A stretch of DNA of 64,000 nt, taken from the NCBI GenBank assembly GCA_003136315.1, contig PLDW01000143.1, forward strand, positions 1 to 64,000. The letters are read 5' to 3'. Made by a program: the position numbers and the translations under genes. The DNA comes from Gemmataceae bacterium (lineage in GTDB: Bacteria; Planctomycetota; Planctomycetia; Gemmatales; Gemmataceae). This document shows, one piece after another, positions 15,068 through 44,422 of the stretch. The first letter of the stretch is position 1; every line of letters begins with the position of its first letter. The notes under the pieces are model-generated. The model was not told the origin of the DNA. It made no database searches and saw nothing but the letters and a program-made list of their open reading frames with translations.

Positions 15068-15089
15068 GGGGCGGCTCCGGTGGTTTGGA

Positions 15090-17069: not shown

Positions 17070-17115
17070 CGCGGCGGCTCGGGGGGGCGGGGTGGCTGGC
17101 CGGTGGGTGGCCGGG

Positions 17116-21172: not shown

Positions 21173-23101
21173 GTGGGGAAGCCGTTCGCGACCGAACTCA
21201 GTCTGCTCCCGGCCACCTACGACTGGGCGACCCAGTTCCCGGTCCAGTCGCTATCGTCAACCCTCCGACGATGCCGGTTCCCGCTCGTCGCGGTCGGCTC
21301 GGGCGGATCGTTCACGACCGCACACCTTGCCGCGTCACTCCACCAGAAGCTGTTCGGCCTCCCGGCCCTCGCTGCGACTCCGCTCGAAATCGCCTCCACC
21401 GACATCGACCTCCGGGAGACTGCCGTCCTCCTTCTGACTGCCGGTGGGAAAAACCACGACATCCTCGGGGCATTCGATACAGCCCTCTGCCGGGAGCCGA
21501 AGCGGCTCATCGTGGTCTGCGCGAGCACAAGATCTCCCCTTGCCCAGCGGGTCAGCCGGTACTCGACTGTCGAACTCTGCGAGTTCGCCCTCCCGTCGGG
21601 CCGGGATGGATTTCTCGCGACGAACTCTCTCCTCGCGTCCGGCGTCTTGCTCTGCCGGGCCTACGAGACATCCGAGGCAGGTAGGATTGCCTTGCCCGAG
21701 AGCCTCGAATCTTTGGTCGGGCCGGGGGTCCAGGAGATCGACTACTCACGGCTGCTCACGGCCGAAACCCTCGTTGTGCTCTACCCCCCGTCACTCAAGA
21801 CTGTCGCCATCGAGATCGAATCCAAGTTTACCGAGGCTGCCCTGGGGCACGTGCAACTCACGGACTACCGACAGTTCGCGCACGGCCGGCACCACTGGCT
21901 CGCGAAGCGCGGGGACCGGACAGCCGTCCTCGCCCTCGCAACGGAAGCCACAGCGGGTGTGATGGAGCGAACGCTCACCCTCATCCCCAAGCTGACTCCG
22001 GTGGTGAAGTCCGTCCTTCCCTACGAAGGGCCGCTCGCCTGCCTCGTCGGAATCGTCCAGGGGTTCGAACTCACCCGGCAGGCCGGCGAGGCGAGAGGGA
22101 TCGACCCTGGCGACCCTGGAGTCCCGGCGTTCGGCCGAAAACTGTACAACCTCGGGGTGTTCATCCGCCCGGTGCGTGCCTCAATCAACGCACTGGCAGA
22201 CCCAGAGGTGGCAATCGCCCGGAAAGCCCGTGGCGCGGAACGAGCCCCGGGCAGCCAGACTTCCGGTTGGATACAGGCCCACGCCGACTTTCTCGACAGG
22301 CTCCGGCGAGCGAGAGTCCGGGCTGTCGTCGCTGACTACGACGGCACCCTCTGCGACGAGGCGAGGCGGCTTGACCCGCTGCCAACGCCAATCACAAGGG
22401 AACTCATTCGGTTGCTTCGGGCCGGTCTTGTGTTGGGAGTTGCCACCGGGCGCGGGCCTTCGGTACGGACGGAGCTTCGGAGGGCACTTCCCAAGGATCT
22501 CTGGGACCGCGTTGTCGTCGGCTATTACAACGGCGGCGACATCGGCCTTCTTGACGATGACCAGACGCCGGACAATACCAAGGCGGTATCAGAGCCACTG
22601 AGGGGTGTCGAGAAACTCCTGGCGAAGCTCGTGGGGTTCCTCGGGGTGCCCGAGCCTGAGTTACGCCCAAAGCAGGTGACCCTGAAGCCGGGCGAAGCCC
22701 AACCGCTAGAACGGTTGTGGCAGAACGTGCAGGGGCTTTTCTGCCCGTCCGCGTTCCCGGGTGTTTCCGTCCTGCGGTCCGGCCACTCGATCGACATCCT
22801 CGCCCCGGGGGTGTCAAAGCTCGCTGTCGTCAACCGAGTTGCGGCTATGTCCGGCGGGACGGTGAACGACGTGCTCTGCATCGGCGACCAAGGCTGCTGG
22901 CCGGGAAATGACCATGCGCTCCTCAGCACGCCGCTTTCCCTCAGCGTGAACACGACCTCGGCCGACCCGGAATGTTGCTGGAACCTGGCCCCGGTAGGGC
23001 ACAGCGAGTCTCAGGCGGCGCTGGGCTACTTCAAGCTGCTCAAGCACTGCTCCAACGGGCTTCGGTTCGAGGTGCCGGACGGCAGGAGGAAACGGACGTG
23101 A
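21173..23101 (+). CDS. SIS domain-HAD hydrolase fusion protein
   Basis: 642 aa. The start is GTG at 21173 because GGAG lies 6 nt before it; a TTG four codons earlier lacks this. The N-terminal half is a SIS (sugar isomerase-type phosphosugar-binding) domain: GSGGSFTTAHLAASL near residue 42, and the second-half motif with ESKFTEAALGHVQLTDYRQF followed by HGRHH. The C-terminal half is a HAD phosphatase with motif I DYDGT at 388-392, a VATGRG motif II segment and a late CIGDQG motif. The fusion suggests binding and dephosphorylation of a phosphosugar or nucleotide sugar. It is the first gene of the cassette; the next gene starts within its stop codon. Confidence 0.8.
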   Translation: MGKPFATELSLLPATYDWATQFPVQSLSSTLRRCRFPLVAVGSGGSFTTAHLAASLHQKLFGLPALAATPLEIASTDIDLRETAVLLLTAGGKNHDILGAFDTALCREPKRLIVVCASTRSPLAQRVSRYSTVELCEFALPSGRDGFLATNSLLASGVLLCRAYETSEAGRIALPESLESLVGPGVQEIDYSRLLTAETLVVLYPPSLKTVAIEIESKFTEAALGHVQLTDYRQFAHGRHHWLAKRGDRTAVLALATEATAGVMERTLTLIPKLTPVVKSVLPYEGPLACLVGIVQGFELTRQAGEARGIDPGDPGVPAFGRKLYNLGVFIRPVRASINALADPEVAIARKARGAERAPGSQTSGWIQAHADFLDRLRRARVRAVVADYDGTLCDEARRLDPLPTPITRELIRLLRAGLVLGVATGRGPSVRTELRRALPKDLWDRVVVGYYNGGDIGLLDDDQTPDNTKAVSEPLRGVEKLLAKLVGFLGVPEPELRPKQVTLKPGEAQPLERLWQNVQGLFCPSAFPGVSVLRSGHSIDILAPGVSKLAVVNRVAAMSGGTVNDVLCIGDQGCWPGNDHALLSTPLSLSVNTTSADPECCWNLAPVGHSESQAALGYFKLLKHCSNGLRFEVPDGRRKRT

Positions 23102-24204
23102 ACCAGGAGTTCGTTCTCGGCAAACTGAGCGAGCTGATGGAGTGGGACGACGTCCGGTCCCGCGCTGAGTTCGCGTGGCTTCGGCTGATGTCCCGGATGA
23201 AGTACGACGGATACCAGGAATTCCTCGCCGGGATGCGATTCATCGAGAGCCTGACCGACTGGCTCCAGCAGTTCATCAGGCCCGAACATCGGGAGGTGGC
23301 CTACCGGTTCATCCGCGAACACCTCGTCTTCGTCAGCTCGGCCGAAATGCATCATCTGGTCGAGCTGTTCTACCCGGAGACGGTGCAGCCCCGGCTGCTC
23401 CAGCGGGTGGCCGAGTTGCAAGGCATCCCCCAATATCGCGTGTGGGCCGACAAGGCAGCGATCGCGGCTTTCCGGACCCTTCTCCGGAAGACCCTCTTCA
23501 TTGAACTGAGCGACGGGGGGCGGATCGACATTTTTCGCCGTGCGAACGCCGGGGTTATCATGCATGAGCAGATCGTGACTGCCCCGCGAATCAACAAGGA
23601 GAAGTGGACGGAACTCCTCGCCGACCTGCGGAAGACGACTGGGAATCCGGCCGACCGATTCGCCTTTGTGTTCCTGGTTGACGACTTCACCGCGAGCGGT
23701 GCCACCCTGCTCCGGCTGGAAGGCGAGAAATGGACAGGGAAACTGTGGCGGTTCTGGGAGGACATGTCGAAGGAGACAACCGCCCACTTCGAGGATGACT
23801 GGACTCTCTGCGTCCACCACTACATCGCAACCGAGCAGGCGGTGAAGTCGGTTGATGAGCGAGATGCGGCAGTCCGAAAGGCCTTGGGTCCGTCGGGCTG
23901 GTTTACGAAAAAGATCGAGATGAGCTTCGGCATGCGACTGGATCGCGAGTTTTCCGTGACGGCATCGTCTGATCCGGATCTTGTCGAACTGATCGAGTCC
24001 TACTACGACGACGCGATCGAGACCGAATCCATGAAAAAAGGCGGCCGGAACGCGCGCTACGGCTTCGGGCAGTGCGGGCTTCCCCTGGTTCTCGATCACA
24101 ACACTCCGAACAATGCCATCGCCCTCCTCTGGGCAGAGAGTGCAGGAACGGGCGGCAAGCACCCGATGCGACCACTTTTCCGTCGCCGGCAGCGGCACAA
24201 TTAG
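23098..24204 (+). CDS. Phosphoribosyltransferase-like conflict protein (PRTase-CE type)
   Basis: 368 aa from a GTG at 23098 that overlaps the previous stop (GTGA), with AGGAGG 7 nt upstream. A PRPP-binding loop is recognisable at 195-202 (VDDFTASGAT), preceded by a hydrophobic strand (RFAFVFL) as in type I phosphoribosyltransferases. The N-terminal ~130 residues are helical. As I recall, this architecture is described as PRTase-CE in comparative work on prokaryotic conflict systems, where it neighbours ORC/CDC6-like ATPases, as it does here. The substrate base or nucleoside is unknown. The cassette also encodes a sugar-phosphate binding/phosphatase fusion and a PfkB kinase, so a ribose-phosphate theme is likely. 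Confidence 0.75.
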   Translation: MNQEFVLGKLSELMEWDDVRSRAEFAWLRLMSRMKYDGYQEFLAGMRFIESLTDWLQQFIRPEHREVAYRFIREHLVFVSSAEMHHLVELFYPETVQPRLLQRVAELQGIPQYRVWADKAAIAAFRTLLRKTLFIELSDGGRIDIFRRANAGVIMHEQIVTAPRINKEKWTELLADLRKTTGNPADRFAFVFLVDDFTASGATLLRLEGEKWTGKLWRFWEDMSKETTAHFEDDWTLCVHHYIATEQAVKSVDERDAAVRKALGPSGWFTKKIEMSFGMRLDREFSVTASSDPDLVELIESYYDDAIETESMKKGGRNARYGFGQCGLPLVLDHNTPNNAIALLWAESAGTGGKHPMRPLFRRRQRHN

Positions 24205-24223
24205 ATCCCGAAAGGGGAGACCG

Positions 24224-26185
24224 ATGGAGAACCCATTCCTCCGCCGCGCGAGTGAATTGCTCCGGGACGATGAAGCGTTCCTCGCGATCGTCAGCCCCGA
24301 GCCGGTGACCTTCCACCTCAAACGACCCGGGGAGAGCGGGAAGCTCTACGACCGGCTGGTCCTCCTTCGCGGTACGCCCGGGAGTGGCAAAACGACGCTC
24401 GCACGCCTCTTCGAGTTGCCCACACTCAGCACTCTGCTCAGGAATCAGAGTTTCACCGGACACAAGGAACTGCACGCGGCCTTGTCGGCATGTCGGGCCA
24501 TAGAGGACGACGAACCGCGGGTTCTCGGTTGCCGGCTGCCAATGGAGAGCGACTACCGTGACTTCTGGGAGTTTCCGTACGCGAATGAGGTGAAGACCGG
24601 CCTGATGGCGTCCCTCCTCCAGGCACGGACCGTGCTCGCATGGTTCCGCCACCTACGGGCCGCAGGGATTCCGCCCGACCAAGTCGAGCTGGTCACCCGG
24701 CCAGAGTCTCAGGGTGTACTCGACACCATCGGGGGGACCCAAGGCAAGGACTTGCTCAAGCGGGCAGCGGACGTCGAGAACCGGATGTACAAAGTCATTA
24801 CGGCGCTCGTCGCGCCCGAAGAGTCGGCGCTCGCCGCCGAGGTCGGCGACCCGTACCGGCCGTTCGACCACATTGAGCGGATCCGCGTCCCAGCGGTCCA
24901 CGGGGCGGGGGGTGGGACGCGGGATTTCATCCCACTCGCCATCTTCGACGACGCTCATGTCCTCCACCCCGAGCAATTCCGGGCGCTGGAGCGGTTACTC
25001 ATCCGCCGCGAGCTCCGGATAGCCCGGTGGATCATCGCCCGCTTCGACGTACTTCTGCCAGAGGAGGCACTCGCAGCGGCGATAGAAGACCGGTCGGACG
25101 GCACCGAGCGCCCAGGCGTCAAGGCGGAGCGGGAGACCGAACTGATCCTGCTCCAGAGTTCTGGTCGCCGACGGCAACAGCGGGAGCAGTTCCGCACCGT
25201 TGCTAAGAGCATGGCCACACGATACCTCCGCAAAACGCAGATCCTGAACGATAAGGGCCTCACTGTCCTCGGGAACGTACTCGGCGAGACTGAACCGATC
25301 CTGACCGCGGGGCGATTGGGTGACCTGGAAAAGAATGTGAATGGGACCCAGCGGCGGCTAAAGGTTTCACAGCCAAAGCGGGAGGGGTTCGAGAAGCAAA
25401 TCCGGGATTACTGGGGGGACAAGACGGCCCTCCCACCTCATATCGCACTCGCCATGCTCAGCGTGATGATGCACCGATATAACGTCCGGCGTGGCCGAAC
25501 CAGTCCGAGCCTGTTCGAGTCGAGGGACGACACTGGTGAAGGCTCGGCGGAGCCTATGGCTGCCGAGCCGATGATCAGCGTGGCCGCGAACAGGGAGGTG
25601 TATGAGGCAGCCGTCTTTCAGCTCTTCCACCACTATGACCGGCCATACTATTTCGGCATCGATAACGTCTGCGACGCAAGTTCGGAGAACGCTGAGCAGT
25701 TCCTCCACATGTCGGGCGAACTCGTCGAGGCGGTGGCCACACTCCTCGCACGGTCGAAGTCGCCCACGCTGACTCCGGCGGCCCAGCACAAGCTATTACG
25801 GGAGCACGGGGCGAAGATCATGAAGGAGTGGGACTTCCCGCAGGACGCCGCAGTCCGACGAGTCGTGAAGCGGATCGCGGATCTGTGCCTGGAGAAATCG
25901 TTGGAGCCGAACGGAGCAGTGATTGCGAATGCCTTTGGCATCCCCCAGGCAGAGTTCGATAAACTCGCCAAGACAGCGCCCGAAGTTGCGAGGGTGCTTC
26001 AGTTCGCGGTCGCCTACAACGCGATCACACTGGTACCACACTACACTTGCCAGGATGAGGTGTGGTGCCTGTTGGAACTCGGGGGGGTGGCGCTCCTCAA
26101 GTACGGGCTCACGCTGAAGCGGGGCGGGTTCATCAAGGGAGCGGTCGTGCAACTCGCGTTGTTCGTGGCGGAGGAGCCGACATGA
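24224..26185 (+). CDS. AAA+ family ATPase (ORC/CDC6-like)
   Basis: 653 aa from an ATG at 24224, with AAAGGGGAGA upstream and a 19-bp gap to the previous gene. Walker A (RGTPGSGKTT) is at residues 49-58; Walker B is near 240 (PLAIFDDAHVL), followed by a sensor-1-like segment (ARWIIARFDVL). The C-terminal 350 residues are helical and include a possible winged-helix or lid region. The short FDDA Walker B and the arrangement fit ORC/CDC6-type AAA+ proteins of conflict loci rather than restriction enzymes. It probably acts as the switch or sensor for the PRTase-like protein. It overlaps the next start as ATGA. Confidence 0.75.
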   Translation: MENPFLRRASELLRDDEAFLAIVSPEPVTFHLKRPGESGKLYDRLVLLRGTPGSGKTTLARLFELPTLSTLLRNQSFTGHKELHAALSACRAIEDDEPRVLGCRLPMESDYRDFWEFPYANEVKTGLMASLLQARTVLAWFRHLRAAGIPPDQVELVTRPESQGVLDTIGGTQGKDLLKRAADVENRMYKVITALVAPEESALAAEVGDPYRPFDHIERIRVPAVHGAGGGTRDFIPLAIFDDAHVLHPEQFRALERLLIRRELRIARWIIARFDVLLPEEALAAAIEDRSDGTERPGVKAERETELILLQSSGRRRQQREQFRTVAKSMATRYLRKTQILNDKGLTVLGNVLGETEPILTAGRLGDLEKNVNGTQRRLKVSQPKREGFEKQIRDYWGDKTALPPHIALAMLSVMMHRYNVRRGRTSPSLFESRDDTGEGSAEPMAAEPMISVAANREVYEAAVFQLFHHYDRPYYFGIDNVCDASSENAEQFLHMSGELVEAVATLLARSKSPTLTPAAQHKLLREHGAKIMKEWDFPQDAAVRRVVKRIADLCLEKSLEPNGAVIANAFGIPQAEFDKLAKTAPEVARVLQFAVAYNAITLVPHYTCQDEVWCLLELGGVALLKYGLTLKRGGFIKGAVVQLALFVAEEPT

Positions 26186-27297
26186 ACAACCTGCTGCGGT
26201 GGGAGCGGTGCGTAAATCATCGGGGGGAGGTCGCCGAGGCGTTCGTTCGCGATTACTTCGCCGGGGAAGACCGCCAAGTCGGCTTGATCGCCGGGGCCGG
26301 TTTCGACCCACGCTCCGTGATCGTGGCCGAGTTGCTGGCCTCGGCGGCACCGGGACGAGTCCGGGGCCTGTTCCTCCGTGAGGAGCGGCCGTCCCCTCAC
26401 TCGCACCTCCTCACCTCCGCCGAGGGGAATGTCAGCCGCCTCCGAAAACTCCTGCCTGGGTCCTTGGTCGAGCGGTTCGACATCTTTGACAAGGCCGACA
26501 CCGCCCCCGTCGGGGGCCGCCGTGTCATCGAACTTCTCCGCCGGAATCTCAACCCCGCCGGACTGACCGACCTGGTAATCGATTGTAGCGCGCTCTCTAT
26601 TGGAGTGTGCTTCTCCATCACCAAGTACTGCTACCAGCTTGCTGTGGCCTCCGCCCTGAACGTCCACCTCGCGGTTCTCGACCACCCGGCGACAGATGGA
26701 GCGTTCCAGGCCGCCCACTGTGGACGGCCGAGTTCCCCTCACGGGTTCCAGGGCGAATGGCAACTTGACAAGTGGTCGAAGGCCGCGAAGCTCTGGATAC
26801 CCCAACTCGGGCGGGGTAAGCGGCTCGTGCTGGAGGAGGTCCACAAGTTCGTCAACCCGCACGCTGTTTGCCCAATCCTCCCGTTCCCGTCTGCCACACC
26901 GCGTTCTCCAGACCGATTGATTGAGGACTATGGCGAGCTGTTCCAACCCTCTTCTTGGGATGTCGATGCCCGTGATCTGATCTATGCCCACGAGAAGAGT
27001 CCTCTCGACTTGTACCGGACGATCCTCCGGCTTGCCGACGCCCGCCATCGCGTCTTCGCTGACACGGGCGGGTCCCAGATCATCCTCTCACCAGTGGGAA
27101 GCAAGGCCCTCGCGCTCGGGATGCTAATGGCGGCCATCGAGCGGGGATTTGCGGTTGTGTTGGTCGAGTCTCTCGCGTACAACCCCGCCCCCTCCGTCCT
27201 GGATCTGGAGATGCGGACCATCCCGCGTGGCGAGTTGGTCCACATATGGCTCCACGGGGAGGCGTACGCGGCGGCGGGCCAAGGGGGTGGCGTGTGA
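26182..27297 (+). CDS. Unknown cassette protein, 371 aa
   Basis: 371 aa from an ATG at 26182 overlapping the ATPase stop (ATGA). No family was recognised. The sequence is alpha/beta: an N-terminal strand-turn LIAGAGFDPRSVIVAELLA, a central LVIDCSALSIGVCFSITKYC, and near the C-terminus QIILSPVGSKALALGMLMAA followed by strands (AVVLVESLAYN). The LSPVGSKALALG segment resembles a ligand-binding glycine turn. It has no transmembrane helix. It is translationally coupled to both neighbours, so it is an obligatory member of the cassette and the best candidate for the part whose chemistry is undescribed. Confidence 0.65.
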   Translation: MNNLLRWERCVNHRGEVAEAFVRDYFAGEDRQVGLIAGAGFDPRSVIVAELLASAAPGRVRGLFLREERPSPHSHLLTSAEGNVSRLRKLLPGSLVERFDIFDKADTAPVGGRRVIELLRRNLNPAGLTDLVIDCSALSIGVCFSITKYCYQLAVASALNVHLAVLDHPATDGAFQAAHCGRPSSPHGFQGEWQLDKWSKAAKLWIPQLGRGKRLVLEEVHKFVNPHAVCPILPFPSATPRSPDRLIEDYGELFQPSSWDVDARDLIYAHEKSPLDLYRTILRLADARHRVFADTGGSQIILSPVGSKALALGMLMAAIERGFAVVLVESLAYNPAPSVLDLEMRTIPRGELVHIWLHGEAYAAAGQGGGV

Positions 27298-28406
27298 GGA
27301 AGAAGGGACCGGACGAACCGACGCCACCGCTTGTGATGGGTACCGGCTTGGTCGCCCTTGATGTTGTCGTCACGGCCGACGACCCCGCCCCGCCAAAACT
27401 GTGGGCGGGCGGCACCTGTGGGAACGTGCTTCTCGCGCTCCGTTACCTCGGGTTCGATTCCGCCCCAGTTTGCCGTCTTCGGGACGACCCGGCAGCGGCG
27501 CTCATTATCGACGAATTCCGCGCGTGGGGGGTCTTGACCGAGTACGTCTCAACGGGGGGCGATGGCAGCACCCCCGTCATCGTCGAGACCATTCGGCGGC
27601 GGCCCGCCGGTGACCCCATCCATACCTTTAGTTGGAGATGCCCGGTCTGCGGCGCTCGCTTCCCAGGCTACAAGTCGGTGCTCGCGTCGTCTGCAGAGGT
27701 GATCGCCGCGAAGATGTCTCCGCCCCAAGTCTTCTTCTTTGACCGCCTCAGCAGGGGTTCTCTCGTCTTGGCCGCCCGCGCCGCCGAACTCGGCAGCCTG
27801 GTCGTGTTTGAGCCGTCGGGTGTCGGGGACTCGGCCCAGTTCCGCGAGGCGTGGTCCGCCTCCCACGTTGTGAAGTATTCCCACGAACGGTTGGCCGAAC
27901 TACCAGACGGGCTGGAGTTCGGGCCAAACCTTCTCCTCCAGGTCGAGACACTTGGTGCGGAAGGCCTCCGCTACCGTGCCCGATTTCGCAAGCAGGTGAT
28001 CTCCCCTTGGCAGACACTGCCTGCCGTAAAAGCCCCCTCCCTCAAAGACACTGCGGGGGCCGGAGACTGGGCAACGACAGGCCTGTTACATCGACTCGGT
28101 CGCGCCGGAGCGACCGGGTTCCGGAATGCTACACCAGAGGAAGTCTTAGCTGCACTCCAGTTTGGGCAGGCGCTTGCCGCGTGGAACTGCGCCTTCGCAG
28201 GCGCAAGGGGCGGGATGTACGTAGCGACAGCGCATGAGTGCCTGGAGCAGGTCGGAGGCATTCTCGCGGGCCGGGATGCCGGGACTGGAAACTCCTCTGT
28301 GTCACATCAGCCACAGGGAATCGCACCCTCCTGGTGCCCGACATGTACGGACCATCAGTCTCCCTCGGTTGCGGTCGGTGGCCAACCACGTCGAACGACC
28401 GCCTGA
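27294..28406 (+). CDS. PfkB-family carbohydrate/nucleoside kinase with Cys pairs
   Basis: 370 aa from a GTG at 27294 overlapping the previous stop. PfkB (ribokinase) family motifs are present: the N-terminal glycine motif GGTCGNV at 39-45 and the C-terminal catalytic/anion-hole motif DTAGAGD near 240. An unusual insertion with C116-P-V-C119 and a C-terminal WCPTC suggest a bound zinc, which is not typical of the family. It should phosphorylate a sugar or nucleoside. As last gene of the cassette it would supply or remove the phosphorylated ligand used by the SIS-HAD and PRTase-like proteins. Confidence 0.8.
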   Translation: MRKKGPDEPTPPLVMGTGLVALDVVVTADDPAPPKLWAGGTCGNVLLALRYLGFDSAPVCRLRDDPAAALIIDEFRAWGVLTEYVSTGGDGSTPVIVETIRRRPAGDPIHTFSWRCPVCGARFPGYKSVLASSAEVIAAKMSPPQVFFFDRLSRGSLVLAARAAELGSLVVFEPSGVGDSAQFREAWSASHVVKYSHERLAELPDGLEFGPNLLLQVETLGAEGLRYRARFRKQVISPWQTLPAVKAPSLKDTAGAGDWATTGLLHRLGRAGATGFRNATPEEVLAALQFGQALAAWNCAFAGARGGMYVATAHECLEQVGGILAGRDAGTGNSSVSHQPQGIAPSWCPTCTDHQSPSVAVGGQPRRTTA

Positions 28407-29851: not shown

Positions 29852-30307
29852 TCAGATGGCGTTTGGATCGGCGTCCCCACCCACCAGCGGGACTACCGGG
29901 GGATACTCCCTCCTGCCTGTGTCTGGCGGCCTCTCCGCCAGGGCTTTGATCTGCATCTCCATCTCCCGCATGTCTGCCTGCAACTCGGCCATCTCCCGCA
30001 CCTTGATCCCGATCTCCAGTACCGCCCGGGCAGCACCCAACCGCACAGCCGGAGGGGCACCTTCCTTTTGCAGGGCGAGCAGGGTCCGCACCGCCTCCCC
30101 TGCGGCAGCGGTCAGCATTCCCGCCGACCGCCGGACCATGTCGCTGCGGAGTGCCCGAAGCTGGGCCACGAATTCCGTATCCTGGAGCCGACGAGAGACC
30201 GTGCGGTCGCTCATCCCGCACTGCTTGGCTGCGGCCTCGACGGTTGCCCCACAGGCCAGGGCCAATAGCAGGGCTTCCTCACCCTTCTTTCGAGTATGCT
30301 TGGCCAC
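29852..30307 (-). CDS. Helix-turn-helix protein (terminase-small-subunit-like HTH)
   Basis: 151 aa from a GTG at 30307 with GGAGG 6 nt upstream. Residues 15-45 form a helix-turn-helix (ATVEAAAKQCGMSDRTVSRR) of the type common to phage small terminase or transposase-like regulators. A long alanine-rich helical region and a coiled coil (MAELQADMREMEMQIKALAE) follow. Such proteins bind DNA and oligomerise. In this element it could be the packaging/mobility or replication-site recognition protein, but no large terminase is present in the window. Confidence 0.7.
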   Translation of the reverse strand: MAKHTRKKGEEALLLALACGATVEAAAKQCGMSDRTVSRRLQDTEFVAQLRALRSDMVRRSAGMLTAAAGEAVRTLLALQKEGAPPAVRLGAARAVLEIGIKVREMAELQADMREMEMQIKALAERPPDTGRREYPPVVPLVGGDADPNAI

Positions 30308-30434
30308 AGGCGACCTCCCTCGACAGGATCCACACGTACCTGACGGACCTTGCTCACTACGACTCGCATGTACCCGGTTCGGTGGGCGGATCGCTCAAAC
30401 AACCGACAAATCCAGACAAAATCCGACAATCGTT

Positions 30435-31622
30435 TCATTCTGCGATGAACCGATCCGCTTTCTTACCCGTGACCGACTCCCAGCGTTTGACCACCACGTC
30501 ACAGTAGCGTGGATCGAGTTCGACGAGGCGGGCTGCTCGCCCCGTCTGCTCGGCTGCGATCAGGGTGGTCCCGCTCCCTCCAAACGGGTCCAGGACGACT
30601 CCCCCGGATGGGCAGGAGTTGCCGATGAGGTAGGCGAACAACTCGACCGGCTTCATGGTGGGGTGGTCGGCATTCTTGGCTGGCTTGTCGAACTCCAGGA
30701 CGGTCGTCTGGGTGCGGTCCGAGAGCCAGGTGTGGGCTGCTCCTTCGGCCCAGCCGTACAGGCAGGGCTCGTGCCGCCAGTGGTAGTCCTGGCGACCCAG
30801 CACGAGCCCTGGCTTGACCCACACCAGGCACTGCCGGATAGCGAGCCCAGCGTCGGCGACAGCTTGCCTCACGGGTAACCCACACAGATCCGCATGCCAG
30901 ACGTAGAAGCCCCCGCCGGGCCGCAGGTGGCCTCCCGCAACGGTCAGGGCGGTGGTGAGGAAACGGCGGTACTCGGCTTCGGGCATCGCGTCGTTGGCGA
31001 TCGTCAACCGCTCTGCCGTCCCCCCTTCATAGGCCACGTTGTACGGTGGGTCCGTGAGCAGCAGGTCAGCGGGTGAACCGTCGAGCACCTGGGCCAGATC
31101 CCCGGGCTTGGTCGCATCTCCGCAGAGCAACCGGTGGCGGCCGAGCAGCCACACGTCCCCGGTCTGGGTGATCGGCACCGCTGGGGGTTCGGGGATCTCG
31201 TCGGGGTCTGCATGCCCACCCTCAGGTGGAGCGGTCAACAACCGCAGCACCTCGTCCTCGGGGAACCCGGTGAGGGACAGGTCGAAGTCGGCTTTCTGCA
31301 GGGCAACCAACTCGGCTGTCAGCCGGTCGTCGTCCCACTGCGAAAGTGTAGCCGTCTGGTTGTCGGCGATGCGGTAGGCCCGAGCCTGCTCGGGGGTCAG
31401 CCCACGGGCCACATGGACCGGCACCTCCTGCATCCCGAGCTTCAGGGCCGCCTTGTACCGGGTATGGCCGACGATGATCACGTCCTGTTCGTCGACGACA
31501 CACGGCTGGCGAAACCCGAATTCGCGGATCGATGCAGCCACGGCGTCCACCCCGGCATCGTTCATCCGCGGGTTGTTCTCGTAGGGCTTGATCAATCCGA
31601 TCGGCCGCATCTCCACGTCCAT
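30435..31622 (-). CDS. ParB-domain DNA N6-adenine methyltransferase
   Basis: 395 aa from an ATG at 31622. Residues 1-100 are a ParB/Srx-type domain (GLIKPYENNPRMNDAGVDAV, with IIVGHTRYKAA). The methyltransferase catalytic motif IV DPPY is at 191-194, and the SAM-binding motif (DPFGGSGTT) lies near the C-terminus. This order (IV before I) is the beta class of adenine methylases found in phages and integrative elements. No cognate restriction gene is adjacent, so it is likely an orphan modification enzyme that protects or marks the element. A copy of the repeated promoter-like sequence begins 32 bp upstream of its start. Confidence 0.9.
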   Translation of the reverse strand: MDVEMRPIGLIKPYENNPRMNDAGVDAVAASIREFGFRQPCVVDEQDVIIVGHTRYKAALKLGMQEVPVHVARGLTPEQARAYRIADNQTATLSQWDDDRLTAELVALQKADFDLSLTGFPEDEVLRLLTAPPEGGHADPDEIPEPPAVPITQTGDVWLLGRHRLLCGDATKPGDLAQVLDGSPADLLLTDPPYNVAYEGGTAERLTIANDAMPEAEYRRFLTTALTVAGGHLRPGGGFYVWHADLCGLPVRQAVADAGLAIRQCLVWVKPGLVLGRQDYHWRHEPCLYGWAEGAAHTWLSDRTQTTVLEFDKPAKNADHPTMKPVELFAYLIGNSCPSGGVVLDPFGGSGTTLIAAEQTGRAARLVELDPRYCDVVVKRWESVTGKKADRFIAE

Positions 31623-31653
31623 CGTTCATCTCCCCGAGCGGGGCGCGGAATGG

Positions 31654-31698
31654 CCCCTATTAGGGAACTACCCCGACCGCCGTCGAAGTGTCCGGCGA
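31654..31698 (-). promoter_or_regulatory. Copy A of the element's repeated promoter-like sequence
   Basis: Read on the minus strand it contains GGACACTTCGA, about 8 bp of variable sequence, GGGGTAGTTCC and a following TA-GGGG block. The same two conserved blocks occur at 38297-38342, 38369-38414 and 44466-44510, and weakly at 44657-44700. The copy lies 32-76 bp upstream of the methyltransferase ATG, where a promoter is expected. Confidence 0.6.
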
Positions 31699-31823
31699 TT
31701 TTGCGGGATCCTGGAAAATCGTGTCGAATCCCGCCCGTATGGACTGGATGTCATCTGCCAAATGGGGTAATCGTGTCACTGCGCTCGTTAATGCAACATC
31801 TGATCACATAAGGAGAACCAGCG

Positions 31824-32138
31824 ATGAGTGACCTCGACATCGGCGATGACCTGACGATCACCCGGACAACCCGCCAGGCTGCGGGGGCCGGAACCTGGGT
31901 GTTCGGACGGGTGGCCGGGCACCGGTTCGAGGGCCTGGTGTTTCCGGAACACGCGGAGTACCCCGCTTACGAGATTGGCGACAGCCGCATCTCGAAACTC
32001 TGGGTCCAGCGACTGGCCGACCGCCAGACGGTATTCAACTGGGACCGCGGGGCCGATGTCACAGCCGTGGATGAGGCGGCCCAGGCGGTGGTCGATTTCC
32101 TGGCCGCAGGGTTGGCGGAGCACGTCTACCCGGGTTGA
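31824..32138 (+). CDS. Small conserved element protein, 104 aa
   Basis: 104 aa from an ATG at 31824 with AAGGAG 10 nt upstream. The sequence is acidic and beta-rich in the middle (GTWVFGRVAGHRFEGLVFPE), ending in a helix (AAQAVVDFLAAGLAEHV). I believe similar proteins occur beside methyltransferase/polymerase modules in other elements, but no function is known to me. It is one of only two plus-strand genes in the element. Confidence 0.65.
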   Translation: MSDLDIGDDLTITRTTRQAAGAGTWVFGRVAGHRFEGLVFPEHAEYPAYEIGDSRISKLWVQRLADRQTVFNWDRGADVTAVDEAAQAVVDFLAAGLAEHVYPG

Positions 32139-32218
32139 GCCGAAACGCCTGCGGGCGTCGCGGCGGGTGGTTCCCGCCGCCTGATGATGGCAACCGAGAA
32201 CCCACACGGGAGACCACC

Positions 32219-32680
32219 ATGACGACTCGGACGAAGACTCCGAAGGCAACGGCGAAGACCAGCAGGAAGGCGGCAGCAACCGGGAAGGCTGGGAAGACAC
32301 GGGCTCCGAAGGCGACCGAGCCAGTCGAGAAGAAGGCCAGCGCCTTGGATGCGGCAGCAAGGGTGCTGTCGGAGAAGGGGGTGGCGATGACCTGCCAGGA
32401 GTTGATCGGGGCAATGGCGGCGAAGGGGTACTGGACGAGCCCCGGCGGTAAGACTCCGCACGCCACCCTCTACTCGGCCATGCTGAGGGAGCTTGCCACC
32501 AAGGGTGACGCCAGCCGGTTCCGGAAAGCAGCTCCTGGCCGATTCGCTGCCGCGGATGCACCTGGAGCAACCACGGACGCCACAGGTGAGTCATCACCAA
32601 TTCCAGCCAAGAAGGGGCGAGCGAAGACGCCTACGCCGGCTCGTGACCCCGAGGGCCAGACTGAACCCGCTGGCGACTGA
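32219..32680 (+). CDS. Winged-helix (HARE-HTH-like) protein with basic tails
   Basis: 153 aa from an ATG at 32219 with GGGAGA upstream. Residues 1-45 are a Lys/Thr/Ala-rich basic tail (TKTPKATAKTSRKAAATGKA). Residues 48-120 form a winged-helix domain of the HARE-HTH type (ALDAAARVLSEKGVAMTCQE, then LYSAMLRELATKG). The C-terminal tail is again basic and low-complexity. The histone-like tails plus the winged helix suggest a DNA-organising or regulatory protein. It is followed by a hairpin at 32705-32725. Confidence 0.75.
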   Translation: MTTRTKTPKATAKTSRKAAATGKAGKTRAPKATEPVEKKASALDAAARVLSEKGVAMTCQELIGAMAAKGYWTSPGGKTPHATLYSAMLRELATKGDASRFRKAAPGRFAAADAPGATTDATGESSPIPAKKGRAKTPTPARDPEGQTEPAGD

Positions 32681-32704
32681 CCCGAACCGCCACCTGTTCG
32701 TACA

Positions 32705-32725
32705 CGAGGCCCCACACGGGCCTCG
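32705..32725. terminator. Hairpin between convergent genes
   Basis: A perfect 8-bp stem (CGAGGCCC / GGGCCTCG) with loop CACAC lies between the plus-strand winged-helix gene and the minus-strand 80-aa gene. There is no T-run, so it may be a weak or Rho-assisted bidirectional terminator. Confidence 0.5.
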
Positions 32726-32789
32726 TTCGCGTTCCGGCGCTTGCCCCGACCGTCGGGGAGATCGGCCCACACCTGCCAACGGTGTCGGC

Positions 32790-33032
32790 TCACTTGAGTT
32801 GGCACAAAACTGCGAGCTGCTTCCTCACCGCGGCCTCGACTGGTCCCGGCATTGCTGCCAGCAACTGGGGCAAGGGCGGCAGCGTGCCCGGCTCCCGGCT
32901 AATATAAGAGTGGGCCAGCTGCGCTGCTGCGGGCGCTCGCAGCCGTTCCAGTTGGATCGCAAGCCCGGACAAATCGTGGTAGTGGTTCACGATTCGCTGA
33001 AGCCTGGTCAGGCGTCGGATGAATGACTTCAT
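32790..33032 (-). CDS. Small protein with basic N-terminal helix
   Basis: 80 aa from an ATG at 33032 with GAGG upstream. The N-terminus (MKSFIRRLTRLQRIVNHYHD) resembles the basic first helix of the LRARLEKL proteins at 28.7-29.8 kb, though less closely. The rest is helical and leucine/proline-rich. It follows the Pol I gene on the same strand. Function unknown. Confidence 0.55.
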   Translation of the reverse strand: MKSFIRRLTRLQRIVNHYHDLSGLAIQLERLRAPAAAQLAHSYISREPGTLPPLPQLLAAMPGPVEAAVRKQLAVLCQLK

Positions 33033-33269
33033 CGTTGGTACCTCGGTTTGCCCCCTTGCGGACCCCAAGCCGGGGACGTCACATGGCACCCGCATTGCGT
33101 CGGCTGGGGGCCGAGTGTGAGGGAACGTCGCTGGTCACATACCAGATCGGACGCACCGAAGCACCCAGGTAAGGTGGCGAAGAGAATCAGGCAAACAACA
33201 CCCCGGCATTTAACGACGAGCGGCCCGAGTGGCCTTATGTTGATCGCACCAACCGCGACCGTCACGTGT

Positions 33270-35117
33270 TCACCCACCCCAGGTTCGCCCGACCGTCACG
33301 TCGACCTCGACCGGCACTGGGTCGATCCATCTGGCGACCGCCTCGACCATACACCGCCGGAGCCAGTCCACCGCCGGTGCGGCGTCACCCACGGGAATCT
33401 CCAGGACAATCTCGTCGTGGCAGAACATGACCGGGACCGCCTCCGGACATTCGGTGCGACTCTCCCACAGCCGGGCGATCGCTTCTTTCAATCCGTCCGC
33501 CCCCGTTCCCTGGACCGGGGTGTTCAAGGCATCAGTCACGTTGGGGTAGGGTGTGCCACTCCCCCGTGTCTTTGCCACCCGCAGGATTCGCCGCCGCCCA
33601 GCAAGGGTCCGAACCTCGTGGGTTCCGGTCGGGTCGGCATGGAACCGCCGTCGGAGGTCAGACCCCACACGATCGTGCCACGCTCGTAGCCCCGGGTACG
33701 ATCGGAAGAACGCCTCCCGGTATCCTTTGGCCTGGACGTCGGTCAGGGCGACCCCGTAGTTCGCCCCTGCGTAACCTTTCAGGCCCCGCCACCCCATCCC
33801 GTACAGCAGCCCAAAGTTCACCGCCTTGGCCAACTGTCGGTCGGCCTTGGTGACCTCGGGCTCGGGTTTGTTGAGGATCCGGGCAGCGGTGAGGGTGTGC
33901 AGATCCCGCCGGTCCTGGTACGCTGCGATCATCACCTCCTCGCCTGCCACCTTCGCTGCAATCCGTAGCTCGATCTGCGAGTAATCCGCCTTCACCAGCA
34001 CCCAGCGTGGACGGGCGACGAAGCATCGGCGGTACTCGTTCCCACGGGGGATCTGTTGCAGGTTGGGATCGGAACAGCTCATCCGCCCACTCTCGGCCCC
34101 AAGTTGGTTCCAGGAGGGGAGGATCCGACCATCGGCCCCGGCGTGCTGAGCGAGCCACTTCTGGCCATATGTCCCGCACCGCTTTGTCGCTCCGCGGTGG
34201 TCTCGAAGCAACCTGGCGAGTGGGTGGTCGATCCCAGCCAGCGTGTCGTCGTCAGTCCCGGCAAGGGTGATTCCGAGGGATGCAAACGCTGCCTTCACCT
34301 CGACCGGCGAGTTCCAGTTCCACCCGCTGAACAAGTTGGCCGGGTTCGGGGCCAGGGTGGTCATCTCCTCGACCAGTCGTGTCACCTCTGCCCTGGCTGA
34401 CGCTGCCAGAGCCGTCCAGGCCGTGGCATCCACGGCGACCGGAGCGGCCCAGGCAATCCCGGGCAGAGCCCGCATCTCGATGTCCGAGGTCGCCGTCAGG
34501 TTGGCCCTGGCCAACTGCCGCTTGAGAGCTTCAGCCAGTGGGAGGAGGACAGCGGCATCGGCCGCAGCGTAGCCGAGCATGGCCGGTGTGAGTGGCCCCG
34601 ACCAGTCGGCCCGCTGGTGGGTCTTGTCCAGGGTCTGGCCGAGTTCGCGAGCGACCACATCCTCCAGGCCGTGGGTGAGCCGGGCGTTATTCGCGCTGCG
34701 GTCCCCGGCATGGAGCACCCGGCTGGCCAGCATGGTGTCGAACACCCGGCCGGGGGTGAACCCGACTCGGGCGAGGAAGCGGAGATCGAACTGGACGTTG
34801 TGCCCGATCACCTCAACCGTGGCGAGAACCTCGAACAGGGGGGCCAGGTCCGCCGCCGGGTCGGTGAGGGCGAAAAGGTCGATGACGCAAGTGTCGTCAC
34901 CCAGCGCGATCTGCACGAGTCTCACACGGTCACGGGCGGGGTCCAACCCGGTTGTCTCGGTGTCCAACCCGACCGGCCCCGGCCAGCCTTTGATCGCTTC
35001 GGCGACCACTGCGACACCCGCCGGATCGGTCACCCTCGTGAACCCGATGTGTGACAAATGCCCTGATGTGTGACAAAAGCCCCCCGGTTCGGACGGCTCA
35101 GCCGCAGACTGCTCCAT
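33270..35117 (-). CDS. Family A DNA polymerase (Pol I-like, 3'-5' exonuclease plus polymerase)
   Basis: 615 aa from an ATG at 35117, which overlaps the Prim-Pol gene; a longer start at 35195 cannot be excluded. The N-terminal 3'-5' exonuclease has Exo I at about 52-54 (LDTETTG) and a YAAADAAVLL Exo III region. The polymerase domain has motif A VKADYSQIELRI, motif B (KAVNFGLLYGMG) and motif C (CHDEIVLE), all with catalytic acids. The 5' nuclease domain of cellular Pol I is missing, as is usual for phage and element replicases. It should replicate the element together with the adjacent primase. Confidence 0.9.
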   Translation of the reverse strand: MEQSAAEPSEPGGFCHTSGHLSHIGFTRVTDPAGVAVVAEAIKGWPGPVGLDTETTGLDPARDRVRLVQIALGDDTCVIDLFALTDPAADLAPLFEVLATVEVIGHNVQFDLRFLARVGFTPGRVFDTMLASRVLHAGDRSANNARLTHGLEDVVARELGQTLDKTHQRADWSGPLTPAMLGYAAADAAVLLPLAEALKRQLARANLTATSDIEMRALPGIAWAAPVAVDATAWTALAASARAEVTRLVEEMTTLAPNPANLFSGWNWNSPVEVKAAFASLGITLAGTDDDTLAGIDHPLARLLRDHRGATKRCGTYGQKWLAQHAGADGRILPSWNQLGAESGRMSCSDPNLQQIPRGNEYRRCFVARPRWVLVKADYSQIELRIAAKVAGEEVMIAAYQDRRDLHTLTAARILNKPEPEVTKADRQLAKAVNFGLLYGMGWRGLKGYAGANYGVALTDVQAKGYREAFFRSYPGLRAWHDRVGSDLRRRFHADPTGTHEVRTLAGRRRILRVAKTRGSGTPYPNVTDALNTPVQGTGADGLKEAIARLWESRTECPEAVPVMFCHDEIVLEIPVGDAAPAVDWLRRCMVEAVARWIDPVPVEVDVTVGRTWGG

Positions 35118-37722: not shown

Positions 37723-37889
37723 AGGGTTCCTCCTTCCAGGAGAGGAGCCAGATCGATGGCGGACCAGCACCGGCTGCCATCCAGCGACCAGAGTTCGGTG
37801 GCCCACGGGCACCGGCGGGTGACCTCGGCTGGGTCGATCCCCACGGCCCGCAGGTCGTCCTCGCCGAGGTAGTCGAAATGATCTCTCAC
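37719..37889 (-). CDS. 56-aa protein preceding the Prim-Pol gene
   Basis: The GTG at 37889 is chosen because AGGAGG lies 8 nt upstream; the frame is open further upstream without such a signal. The product begins MRDHFDYLGEDDLRAVGIDP and ends with CWSAIDLAPLLEGGTL. It overlaps the Prim-Pol start by GTGA, so it is co-translated with it. Function unknown. Confidence 0.6.
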   Translation of the reverse strand: MRDHFDYLGEDDLRAVGIDPAEVTRRCPWATELWSLDGSRCWSAIDLAPLLEGGTL

Positions 37890-37972
37890 TGGCGGTCCTC
37901 CTATGGCACGGCGCGCACCGCGGACGGTCCCGCCTTGCGGCAGGTTCACGGATGCGTCCGGTCAACAGGTGG

Positions 37973-42054: not shown

Positions 42055-42058
<4 letters not shown>
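41624..42058 (-). CDS. ParB-type HTH protein downstream of the recombinase
   Basis: 144 aa from an ATG at 42058 overlapping the recombinase stop (ATGA). A helix-turn-helix is at about 62-90 (IADYAEIARLGHVTRARVSQ), of the KorB/ParB central type, preceded by a basic Gly/Arg-rich stretch. Small proteins of this kind regularly follow DUF2924 and large serine recombinase genes. A role in recombination directionality or autoregulation is plausible but not shown. Confidence 0.7.
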
Positions 42059-43652
<1,594 letters not shown>

Positions 43653-43656
<4 letters not shown>

Positions 43657-44177
43657 GCCGCACCTCCCTTCGAATTGAGTCGGAAGAACAGAAACCCGTT
43701 GCAGTGGTTCCCCGAGACCGCCTTGGCCACAGCGCTGAGCGAGCCGTAGACCTGGCCGTCGTACTCGAATCCCTCGGCGAGAACCTTCACCTGGACGTCC
43801 CCGCCCTTGTACTTGCGGGTGAGGATCGTGCCGGCCGGGGGAAGACGTCCGTCGGCTGGGGATCGCACGTCTTTGGCCCGGGTTGGGCCTGTCGGGCCTC
43901 CAGGTGGGTCCGTGCGGCCCGTGGGCGGGCTGAGCCGGAGGTCGGCATCCCGGGCCAACTCGGTTGCCCGGGCCTTGGCCCGCTCGCTCAGGTCGCCCTC
44001 GGCGAGGGCCTGGACCCGCCAGGCGATCCGGCGGACCAGCCAGGTCCGGTTGCCGGTCGTTGTGGCCTCGTCGAACACCTCGGCATATCGCTCGCGGAGT
44101 TGTTTGACGGTCATTCGCTGCAAGGCGGCCACCTCCTTGGCCACGTTCGGCGTCTCTTTCTCGACCTTCGTTTGCAT
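43653..44177 (-). CDS. DUF2924 protein
   Basis: 174 aa from an ATG at 44177 with GAGAGG upstream, preferred over a TTG at 44210. N-terminal helices (VAALQRMTVKQLRERYAEVF, then RTWLVRRIAWRVQALAEG) and a C-terminal beta domain (GTILTRKYKGGDVQVKVLAE) match DUF2924, known as the regular upstream neighbour of large serine recombinases. Its stop overlaps the recombinase start. The function is unknown; the constant pairing suggests an accessory DNA-binding factor of the recombinase. Confidence 0.85.
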
Positions 44178-44206
44178 CGCAACCTCTCTGGGAATCTCGG
44201 GATCGG

Positions 44207-44422
44207 TCAACCGCCGTGGACAGTAACGCTCGTCTCGGCCGACACAGCAAGTCGATTCGGAGCAGATTCTGAAGAATCCTCCGATGCCCGTTCGAGGGGG
44301 ATTTCCGGGGAGATGATCGGCCGGCGGAGACGCAGAAGACCGGCCGCGAGAATGGTGGCCAGGGCGCTCGTTCGAGCATCAGGGGAGAGTTCGACAGGGT
44401 CGATTGCAGAGGGGAAGAGCAT
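44207..44422 (-). CDS. 71-aa protein at the head of the recombinase operon
   Basis: Starts at ATG 44422 with GAGG upstream. It begins with an acidic/hydrophobic helix (SPDARTSALATILAAGLLRL) and ends SAPNRLAVSAETSVTV. I recall similar short products before DUF2924-recombinase genes in planctomycetes, so it is probably real. It ends 29 bp before the DUF2924 start. Copy D of the repeated promoter-like sequence is 44 bp upstream. Confidence 0.6.
   Translation of the reverse strand: MLFPSAIDPVELSPDARTSALATILAAGLLRLRRPIISPEIPLERASEDSSESAPNRLAVSAETSVTVHGG

What the first reader, a model, noticed from the sequence alone, without database searches (positions are those of the whole stretch)
21173..28406. 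Ribose-phosphate themed conflict cassette: SIS-HAD, PRTase-like, AAA+, unknown 371-aa, PfkB kinase
Seen: five plus-strand genes, four junctions, three of them start/stop overlaps. Motifs: SIS GSGGS, HAD DYDGT, PRPP loop VDDFTASGAT, Walker A GTPGSGKTT, PfkB GGTCGNV and DTAGAGD. Known (from memory): PRTase-CE and ORC/CDC6-like proteins appear together in predicted prokaryotic conflict systems. Inference: the cassette makes, senses or destroys a phosphoribosyl or nucleoside signal, with the AAA+ protein as switch. The 371-aa protein is unassigned and coupled on both sides.
Basis: partly seen in the sequence, partly recalled or inferred. Interest (0 to 1): 0.75.

Follow-up and report, generated by a model that had tools for sequence, protein, structure and literature searches.

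The report
Two-module CARF-sensor conflict cassette
Five adjacent bacterial genes form a mobile, probably anti-viral kit in which a nucleotide sensor, a molecular switch and a nucleotide-acting enzyme travel with a pair of sugar-phosphate enzymes, hinting at an immune signal that is still to be identified.

Summary
Five plus-strand genes (21173-28406) encode SIS-HAD, PRTase-CE (PF24390), ORC-CDC6-like AAA+ (PF24389), a 371-aa protein and a PfkB kinase. The 'unknown' 371-aa protein is a CARF-fold protein of PADLOC's CARF6 family (E 1.7e-95; model pLDDT 92.8; nearest solved folds are CARF effectors of type III CRISPR). It is not housekeeping: 6 of 149 genomes searched (own included) have the CARF gene. 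The cassette recurs in 13 phyla; 60 of 62 loci with enough sequence hold all five genes. Trees split it into two modules: {CARF, AAA+, PRTase}, in two subtypes, and {SIS-HAD, PfkB}, sometimes with a NADAR N-glycosidase. The modules are re-paired repeatedly (AU p 1.3e-41), and two plasmids carry one triad of each subtype beside a single enzyme pair. Of 50 cassette genomes, 28 lack both Cas10 and SMODS CD-NTase above cut-off. Best reading: a CRISPR-independent conflict system in which the pair sets the level of a ribosyl or sugar-phosphate signal that the triad reads. Ligand, direction and phage defence are inferred. Two papers likely to describe parts of it could not be opened.

The parts
21173..23101 (+). 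SIS-HAD fusion (642 aa, GTG start): sugar-phosphate isomerase-type SIS domain plus HAD-IIB phosphatase domain; enzyme-pair module
   Evidence: PF08282 27.5 bits (cut-off 20.9); profile hits to phosphosugar isomerases 8eol/3hba (E 6e-5) and HAD hydrolases 3mpo, 4qjb (E 1e-5 to 5e-5); E216, E221, H237, H240, D388, D390, T392, K549, D572, N579, D580 identical in all 61 taxa
23098..24204 (+). PRTase-CE (368 aa), class I phosphoribosyltransferase fold with PRPP loop DDFTASG; candidate effector of the triad
   Evidence: PF24390 65.6 bits (cut-off 27); PADLOC PRTase_III-A E 5.7e-13; AlphaFold pLDDT 93.8; 45 of 50 listed VIA-align rows name a PRTase, Fur1p or PyrR (5 have uninformative titles), best Z 8.9; D195, D196, F197, G201 identical in 61 taxa
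24224..26185 (+). AAA+ ATPase, ORC-CDC6-like (653 aa), Walker A GTPGSGKTT, Walker B D242-D243; candidate switch
   Evidence: PF24389 36.8 bits (cut-off 27); G53, G55, K56, D242, D243, W269, R273 identical in 61 taxa
26182..27297 (+). CARF6-family protein (371 aa), two CARF-like Rossmann halves (about 30-170 and 198-335) in one chain; candidate ligand sensor
   Evidence: PADLOC PDLC01916 CARF6 E 1.7e-95; pLDDT 92.8; top 12 VIA-align rows are CARF proteins, Z 12.7 to 7.3
27294..28406 (+). PfkB/ribokinase-family kinase (370 aa, GTG start) with two CxxC pairs (C116/C119, C348/C351); enzyme-pair module
   Evidence: PF00294 37.6 bits (cut-off 25.8); ketohexokinase/fructokinase profile hits from E 3.6e-13; G39, G40, N44, D252, G255, G257, D258 identical in 61 taxa
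42055..44379 (-). large serine recombinase, candidate integrase of an element that may carry the cassette
   Evidence: PF00239/PF07508/PF13408; PHROG 95 integrase E 1.5e-116. Element ends not found
29852..37965 (-). phage-like genes right of the cassette: terminase-small-like 29852-30307, ParB-methyltransferase 30435-31622, DNA polymerase 33270-35195, helicase/primase 35098-37965

Best explanation
A mobile, CRISPR-independent conflict (most likely anti-phage) system made of two modules. Module 1 is a triad: the CARF6 protein binds a small nucleotide-like ligand in the cleft between its two CARF halves, this drives the ORC/CDC6-like AAA+ ATPase to assemble or release, and that unleashes the PRTase-CE, which stops the cell or the virus by acting on nucleotides or PRPP. 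Module 2 is an enzyme pair, SIS-HAD plus PfkB kinase (in some lineages with a NADAR N-glycosidase), that makes or clears a ribosyl/sugar-phosphate metabolite and so sets the level of the ligand. Shown here: domain identities, invariant catalytic-type residues, co-occurrence, sporadic mobile distribution, separate evolution and repeated re-pairing of the two modules, and one pair beside triads of both subtypes in two plasmids. Inferred: that the modules communicate through a diffusible metabolite rather than a specific protein contact, that the AAA+ is a switch, that the PRTase is the effector, and that the target is phage. Open: whether the pair makes the activating ligand or keeps it low.
For: CARF identity. 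PRTase-CE and ORC-CDC6-like families; PRTase fold. All five genes in 60 of 62 loci with room. In 72,556 plasmid records the SIS-HAD, CARF and PRTase queries hit 18, 17 and 18 records, 17 of them common to all three. Sporadic: 6 of 149 and 3 of 392 genomes, own included. Tree-distance correlation 0.91 within the pair, 0.93-0.96 within the triad, 0.45-0.71 between; order held in 1000 of 1000 bootstraps of taxa. Subtype-B triads are rejected as one clade on the SIS-HAD tree, p-AU 1.3e-41, at least 5 changes forced by starred branches. One A and one B triad beside a single pair in S. meliloti and R. tumorigenes plasmids. Alternative orders keep the modules as blocks: SIS-HAD-PfkB-PRT-AAA-CARF (L056-L059, and L060 as far as its contig goes) and PRT-AAA-CARF-SIS-HAD-PfkB. 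NADAR next to the pair in 4 of 80 genome loci and 6 of 9 plasmid cassettes viewed. Catalytic-type residues invariant. No Cas10 or SMODS over cut-off in 28 of 50 cassette genomes. Restriction and DISARM families in flanks. Precedents read as passages: RtcR, a CARF-AAA+ protein, oligomerises on a ligand that is not cyclic oligoadenylate (PMC7790460); DprA-PRTase protects against T7 and lambda (PMC9122126).
Against: No experiment of any kind. The ligand is unknown; the pair could serve repair or recovery and never touch the CARF ligand. Re-pairing of modules also fits plain recombination in defence islands without any shared metabolite. The CARF could be triggered by a host or phage RNA end or nucleotide. 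22 of 50 genomes do carry a Cas10 or SMODS hit over cut-off, the window's own genome among them (Cas10), and other cyclases were not searched. The defence-island signal rests on redundant family counts with a small, imperfect control.
Confidence: 0.5

Rival explanations
1. The CARF6 protein is an ordinary receptor for cyclic oligoadenylate or a cyclic dinucleotide made elsewhere in the genome by Cas10 (type III CRISPR) or a CBASS CD-NTase; the cassette is an effector in trans and the enzyme pair is incidental.
For: Closest solved folds are cA4/cA5/cA6-binding CARF proteins. The window's own genome has a Cas10 on another contig (G000:C313, 112 bits). 12 of 50 cassette genomes have Cas10 over cut-off and 14 of 50 have SMODS over cut-off.
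Against: 28 of 50 cassette genomes have neither over cut-off, and 6 of the 12 Cas10 hits are weak (27-36 bits). No Cas10 or CD-NTase belongs to the cassette. The pair is present in 60 of 62 loci with room, which an incidental pair would not be. Genome incompleteness and other cyclases are not controlled.
Confidence: 0.15
2. The enzyme pair is a guardian (metabolic antitoxin): it keeps a toxic or triggering ribosyl/sugar phosphate low, and phage takeover or loss of a plasmid lets it rise, which frees the triad. The cassette then acts as an addiction or abortive-infection module.
For: The pair is kept beside the triad and one pair can accompany two triads. NADAR, a ribosyl N-glycosidase (PMC9503650, passages), sits with the pair. 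9 of 18 SIS-HAD plasmids are predicted conjugative. Clover gives a precedent for an inhibitory nucleotide signal (PMC12265719, abstract and passages).
Against: Nothing here distinguishes making from clearing; both fit the same data.
Confidence: 0.25
3. The PRTase makes the signal (a phosphoribosylated compound) and the effector is the AAA+ protein or a host target.
For: The PRPP loop is intact and its DDF and G are invariant; pair and PRTase share phosphoribosyl-type chemistry; the AAA+ is ORC/CDC6-like and could act on DNA.
Against: The PRTase co-evolves with CARF and AAA+ (r 0.93-0.96) rather than with the pair (0.60-0.71). PRTases are regarded as probable effectors in retrons and in DprA-PRTase (PMC12548924 and PMC9122126, passages).
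Confidence: 0.12
4. A housekeeping or niche sugar/nucleoside salvage operon.
For: SIS, HAD, PfkB and PRTase domains all occur in salvage pathways.
Against: Absent from all 5 other genomes of the genus and from 143 of 149 genomes searched. It carries a CARF protein and an AAA+ ATPase, lies on plasmids, and shows module exchange.
Confidence: 0.05

Closest known systems
CARF6 family (PADLOC models PDLC01916/PDLC01910; recalled to come from Makarova et al. 2020, NAR, not held)
   Same: The 371-aa protein matches over nearly its full length at E 1.7e-95.
   Different: The model names one protein only. Whether that paper describes this five-gene neighbourhood could not be checked.
PRTase-CE / ORC-CDC6-like conflict systems (Pfam PF24390, PF24389; recalled source Nicastro et al. 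2023, NAR, doi 10.1093/nar/gkad879, not held)
   Same: Both families hit over curated cut-off, side by side.
   Different: Here the two are in a triad with a CARF protein and beside a separately evolving SIS-HAD/PfkB pair. The paper may already describe this; not readable here.
Retron type III-A (reverse transcriptase + PRTase + winged-helix protein)
   Same: PRTase matches PADLOC PRTase_III-A, E 5.7e-13; PRTase/WH effector genes are typical of III-A1 (PMC12548924, passages). That the PADLOC label means this retron type is recalled.
   Different: No reverse transcriptase in the five-gene block; the candidate sensor is a CARF protein.
DprA-PRTase anti-phage system (PMC9122126, passages)
   Same: PRTase proposed as effector behind a sensor; reported to protect against T7 and lambda.
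   Different: Sensor is DprA; no CARF, AAA+ or sugar enzymes are mentioned.
RtcR (CARF-AAA+-HTH regulator of RNA repair, PMC7790460, passages)
   Same: CARF coupled to an AAA+ ATPase outside CRISPR; ligand binding drives oligomerisation.
   Different: CARF and AAA+ in one chain with a transcription role; ligand is a tRNA 5' half ending in cyclic phosphate.
Clover (CloA dNTPase + CloB, PMC12265719, abstract and passages)
   Same: A nucleotide-acting effector set by a signal-making partner enzyme.
   Different: Signal enzyme is a nucleotidyltransferase; two genes, effector is an HD-domain dGTPase.

Membership tests
CARF superfamily (CARF6) | CARF profile match and Rossmann-like CARF fold | tested here: met
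   PADLOC CARF6 E 1.7e-95; VIA-align rows 1-12 all CARF proteins, best Z 12.7 (rmsd 6.3, 264 aligned) and Can2 Z 12.1 (rmsd 2.4, 114 aligned); first row outside CARF Z 7.2. Plain Foldseek order was led by unrelated chains.
CARF superfamily (CARF6) | binds cyclic oligoadenylate or another nucleotide | not testable with these tools
   needs biochemistry
PRTase-CE (PF24390) | profile over curated cut-off, PRPP-binding loop | tested here: met
   65.6 against 27 bits; D195, D196, F197 and G201 of the loop identical in 61 taxa
ORC-CDC6-like (PF24389) | profile over curated cut-off, intact Walker A and B | tested here: met
   36.8 against 27 bits; K56, D242, D243 invariant. A winged-helix part was not tested.
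Type III CRISPR / CBASS effector | encoded with its nucleotide cyclase (Cas10 or CD-NTase) | tested here: not met
   no cyclase in the five-gene block; Cas10 over cut-off in 12 and SMODS in 14 of 50 cassette genomes, 28 of 50 with neither
Retron type III-A | reverse transcriptase and ncRNA next to the PRTase | tested here: not met
   five-gene block without RT in 60 of 62 loci; apart from the block no flanking family recurs in more than 9 of 88 loci. The RT at 45803-47665 of the window is a group II intron protein.
Anti-phage defence system | protects a host against phage | not testable with these tools
   indirect only: mobility and defence-gene flanks
Salvage / housekeeping operon | conserved in relatives | tested here: not met
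   CARF gene in 6 of 149 genomes (own included) and in 0 of 5 other genomes of the genus

The most novel reading that the evidence does not exclude
A CARF-based immune circuit whose ligand is made or cleared by carbohydrate enzymes (SIS-HAD, PfkB, at times NADAR) instead of a nucleotide cyclase: a new chemical class of prokaryotic immune signal, probably a ribosyl or sugar-phosphate derivative, read by exchangeable CARF-AAA+-PRTase triads of two subtypes.
Probability: 0.35. Interest if true: 0.85.

Novelty: new variant of a known kind. Interest (0 to 1): 0.62.

Why it matters
CARF sensors are known mainly as readers of cyclic oligoadenylates made by Cas10. Here a CARF protein is tied, in 13 phyla, to enzymes of sugar-phosphate chemistry and to a PRTase of a type thought to be an immune effector. 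If the enzyme pair acts on the CARF ligand, this exposes an unknown immune messenger and gives a direct way to find it: purify the CARF protein with and without the pair and identify what is bound. The natural mix-and-match of pairs and triads supplies ready-made test constructs.

Tried and rejected
Housekeeping salvage: rejected on distribution. Retron or type III CRISPR membership: no RT or Cas10 in the block. A sixth obligatory gene: none; the most frequent flanking family occurs in 9 of 88 loci. NADAR is a lineage-restricted partner (4 of 80 genome loci). att sites of the window's element: only 11-12 bp matches, no better than two control pairs. Empty site in relatives: the flanking genes are not conserved enough. 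Phage records: no match for CARF or SIS-HAD in 50,697 records; two putative viral contigs carry the cassette.

Foldseek alone gave unrelated transporters and KaiC first; the CARF call rests on VIA-align plus the PADLOC profile. Profile search of PDB sequences found no CARF relative and only a weak orotate PRTase (E 0.63) for the PRTase. The pocket-loop enrichment of residues shared by both triad subtypes (15 of 31 conserved positions in 80 of 371, p 5e-4) uses loops that I defined after seeing the model; I give it little weight. Weak CARF match in G040 (E 7.5e-5): no SIS-HAD in that genome and no hit with the cassette profiles; set aside. Exceptions to the five-gene rule: L033 (no PRTase or AAA+ found, partial CARF) and L078 (SIS-HAD only, shortened); not pursued. 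A lone PRTase lies on one Rhizobium plasmid. Rows dropped: one search kept the best 80 of 97 loci; one search used 60 of 63 full loci (L010, L051, L059 left out as duplicates or near-duplicates) plus the window; one search used 35 representatives plus the window; searches used 49 of 80 loci plus the window's genome; of 18 SIS-HAD plasmids I displayed 9, some chosen for unusual gene order.

Literature: 'CARF' and 'PRTase' as whole words occur together in 3 held papers; passages of two were read, the third (PMC5512222) was seen only in the listing. Searches with 'CARF6' and 'ORC-CDC6-like' and with combinations of the domain names listed nothing on this cassette. The two most relevant papers (NAR 2020 CARF classification; NAR 2023 nucleotide-targeting effectors) are not held, so I make no claim that the cassette is unpublished.
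Full report
What is in the window. The genes are SIS-HAD 21173-23101, PRTase 23098-24204, AAA+ 24224-26185, a 371-aa protein 26182-27297 and PfkB 27294-28406; three junctions overlap by ATGA or GTGA and one has a 19-bp gap. Pfam gives Hydrolase_3, PRTase-CE (65.6 bits, cut-off 27), ORC-CDC6-like (36.8, cut-off 27), nothing for the 371-aa protein, and PfkB (37.6, cut-off 25.8).

The unknown protein. PADLOC names the 371-aa protein CARF6 (E 1.7e-95, residues 9-357) and the PRTase 'PRTase_III-A' (E 5.7e-13); I recall that label as the type III-A retron effector, and PMC12548924 says that PRTase/WH genes are typical of retron III-A1 (passages). An AlphaFold model from 38 homologues has pLDDT 92.8. 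Re-alignment of Foldseek's candidates by VIA-align puts twelve rows of CARF proteins first (Csm6, Can2, Cam1, Cad1; Z 12.7 to 7.3), with other Rossmann-like folds from Z 7.2 on. Rows 2 and 4 fit Can2 on residues 198-331 and 30-357, so the chain seems to hold two CARF halves; that they form a pseudo-dimer with one cleft is my inference. Plain Foldseek order did not show this, and a profile search of PDB sequences found no CARF.

The enzymes. The PRTase model (pLDDT 93.8) matches phosphoribosyltransferases: 45 of 50 listed rows name a PRTase, Fur1p or PyrR and 5 have uninformative titles; best Z 8.9. Profile searches place the SIS half near phosphosugar isomerases, the HAD half near HAD hydrolases, and the kinase near ketohexokinases and fructokinases. 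Over 61 taxa the residues that I checked are identical in SIS-HAD (11 of 11), and in AAA+ 7 of 8 (T57 is 94% in subtype B); in the PRTase 9 of 10 (position 200 is T or S); in PfkB 9 of 13, the other four being the cysteines of two CxxC pairs. Which SIS residues are catalytic is by analogy recalled from GlmS-type isomerases.

Distribution. The CARF gene is in 6 of 149 genomes searched, the window's own included and one match weak, and in none of the other 5 genomes of the genus; its family is in 3 of 392 genomes of the phylum, own included. A scan of one genome for each of 84,980 species with a SIS-HAD alignment found 97 loci, of which 80 were kept, from 13 named phyla: Pseudomonadota 43, Planctomycetota 13, Bacteroidota 6, Acidobacteriota 4, nine others with 1 or 2, one unassigned. 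Of 62 loci with at least 5.6 kb after SIS-HAD, 60 hold all five genes. In 72,556 plasmid records SIS-HAD, CARF and PRTase queries hit 18, 17 and 18 records; 17 are common to all three, and 9 of the 18 SIS-HAD plasmids are predicted conjugative. No named phage record has the CARF or SIS-HAD gene; two viral contigs have the cassette.

Two modules. Patristic distances over 61 taxa correlate at 0.91 for SIS-HAD with PfkB, 0.93-0.96 among PRTase, AAA+ and CARF, and 0.45-0.71 between the groups; the lowest within-module value exceeded the highest between-module value in 1000 of 1000 bootstraps of taxa. PRTase, AAA+ and CARF split the taxa into the same 45 and 16 (subtypes A and B). On the SIS-HAD tree of 36 rows the 13 subtype-B members need 6 changes, at least 5 forced by starred branches, and holding them together is rejected (p-AU 1.3e-41; the group was named from the other proteins). 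Sister SIS-HADs carry different triads in Opitutaceae (L088/L090) and Acidobacteriaceae (L073/L074). Gene order agrees: Bradyrhizobium loci have SIS-HAD-PfkB then PRT-AAA-CARF; four plasmids have PRT-AAA-CARF then SIS-HAD-PfkB; Sphingomonas has the two blocks apart, NADAR and an HTH gene between them. S. meliloti RRI128 and R. tumorigenes 1078 plasmids carry two triads, one scoring as A and one as B, with a single pair. One pair therefore coexists with both subtypes, which fits a link through a small molecule better than through a specific protein interface. That is inference: recombination between neighbouring defence genes could also re-pair modules.

A recurrent guest. A NADAR gene abuts the pair in 4 of 80 genome loci and lies with it in 6 of the 9 plasmid cassettes that I displayed, some of which were chosen for unusual order. 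NADAR domains are described as ribosyl N-glycosidases (PMC9503650, passages). This points the chemistry of the pair towards ribosyl compounds.

Where the signal comes from. Cas10 over cut-off was found in 12 and SMODS in 14 of 50 cassette genomes, four in common, so 28 have neither; the window's genome has Cas10. Some genomes are incomplete MAGs and other cyclases were not searched, so this weakens but does not exclude a standard cyclic oligonucleotide.

Defence context. Of 148 proteins flanking 33 cassettes, PADLOC families at E 1e-10 included type I methyltransferases (up to 3 proteins) and specificity subunits (2), type IIG enzymes (2) and DISARM DrmD and DrmA (2 each), with 165 and 126 families matched in the two batches. 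83 proteins from 14 control stretches of cassette genomes matched 73 families, with no restriction or DISARM name among the 25 shown. Family counts are redundant and the control is small. In the window the cassette lies beside phage-like genes and a large serine recombinase, but I could not define the ends of an element.

Mechanism. Best reading: ligand binds CARF6, the AAA+ protein converts this into assembly or release, and PRTase-CE attacks nucleotides or PRPP; SIS-HAD and PfkB, sometimes with NADAR, make or clear the ligand. Precedents: RtcR, a CARF-AAA+ protein that oligomerises on tRNA 5' halves (PMC7790460, passages); DprA-PRTase, reported protective against T7 and lambda (PMC9122126, passages); Clover, an effector restrained by a partner enzyme's nucleotide (PMC12265719, abstract and passages). 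Deleting the pair would tell making from clearing.

Novelty. Every part belongs to a catalogued family. The two papers that I recall as their sources are not held, so the five-gene unit may be in print. My searches of the held library list nothing on it. I file it as a new variant of a known kind: a CARF-gated conflict system without its own cyclase.

Noticed in passing
L101 5847-18117 (S. meliloti pRRI128_5); L105 2804-17083 (R. tumorigenes pRt1078): Two complete triads, one per subtype, with a single SIS-HAD/PfkB pair and NADAR; in L105 a patatin-like phospholipase gene lies between the triads.
   Followed up: yes
window 27294-28406, residues 116/119 and 348/351 of PfkB: Two CxxC pairs, kept in 96-98% beside A triads and 62% beside B triads at all four positions: possibly a zinc site built from an insert and the C-terminal tail.
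   Followed up: partly
L132 7212-8620 (Sphingomonas plasmid): Nucleoside 2-deoxyribosyltransferase gene just upstream of the SIS-HAD/PfkB/NADAR block.
   Followed up: no
L102 14040-15494 (Rhizobium CB3060 plasmid): Caspase-family protease gene next to the cassette's NADAR gene.
   Followed up: no
L106 2889-6376 (Shinella plasmid p3_Teo12): Mu-transposase-like, TniB and TniQ genes upstream and two integrase genes around the cassette.
   Followed up: no
window 12341-19874, minus strand: Dynamin-family GTPase (15090-17189), a weak SrfB-like protein (12341-15160) and two proteins without Pfam match, in one direction left of the cassette.
   Followed up: no
window 45803-47665: Group II intron reverse transcriptase/maturase with HNH domain, just right of the serine recombinase.
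   Followed up: no
G000 contig C313:11374-11742: Cas10 palm match (112 bits) elsewhere in the window's genome.
   Followed up: no
L146 7983-9044 (Rhizobium sp. CC1099 plasmid): A lone PRTase of this family without annotated cassette partners nearby.
   Followed up: partly
L014 5294-6115 (G040): Weak CARF relative (E 7.5e-5) in a genome without SIS-HAD.
   Followed up: partly
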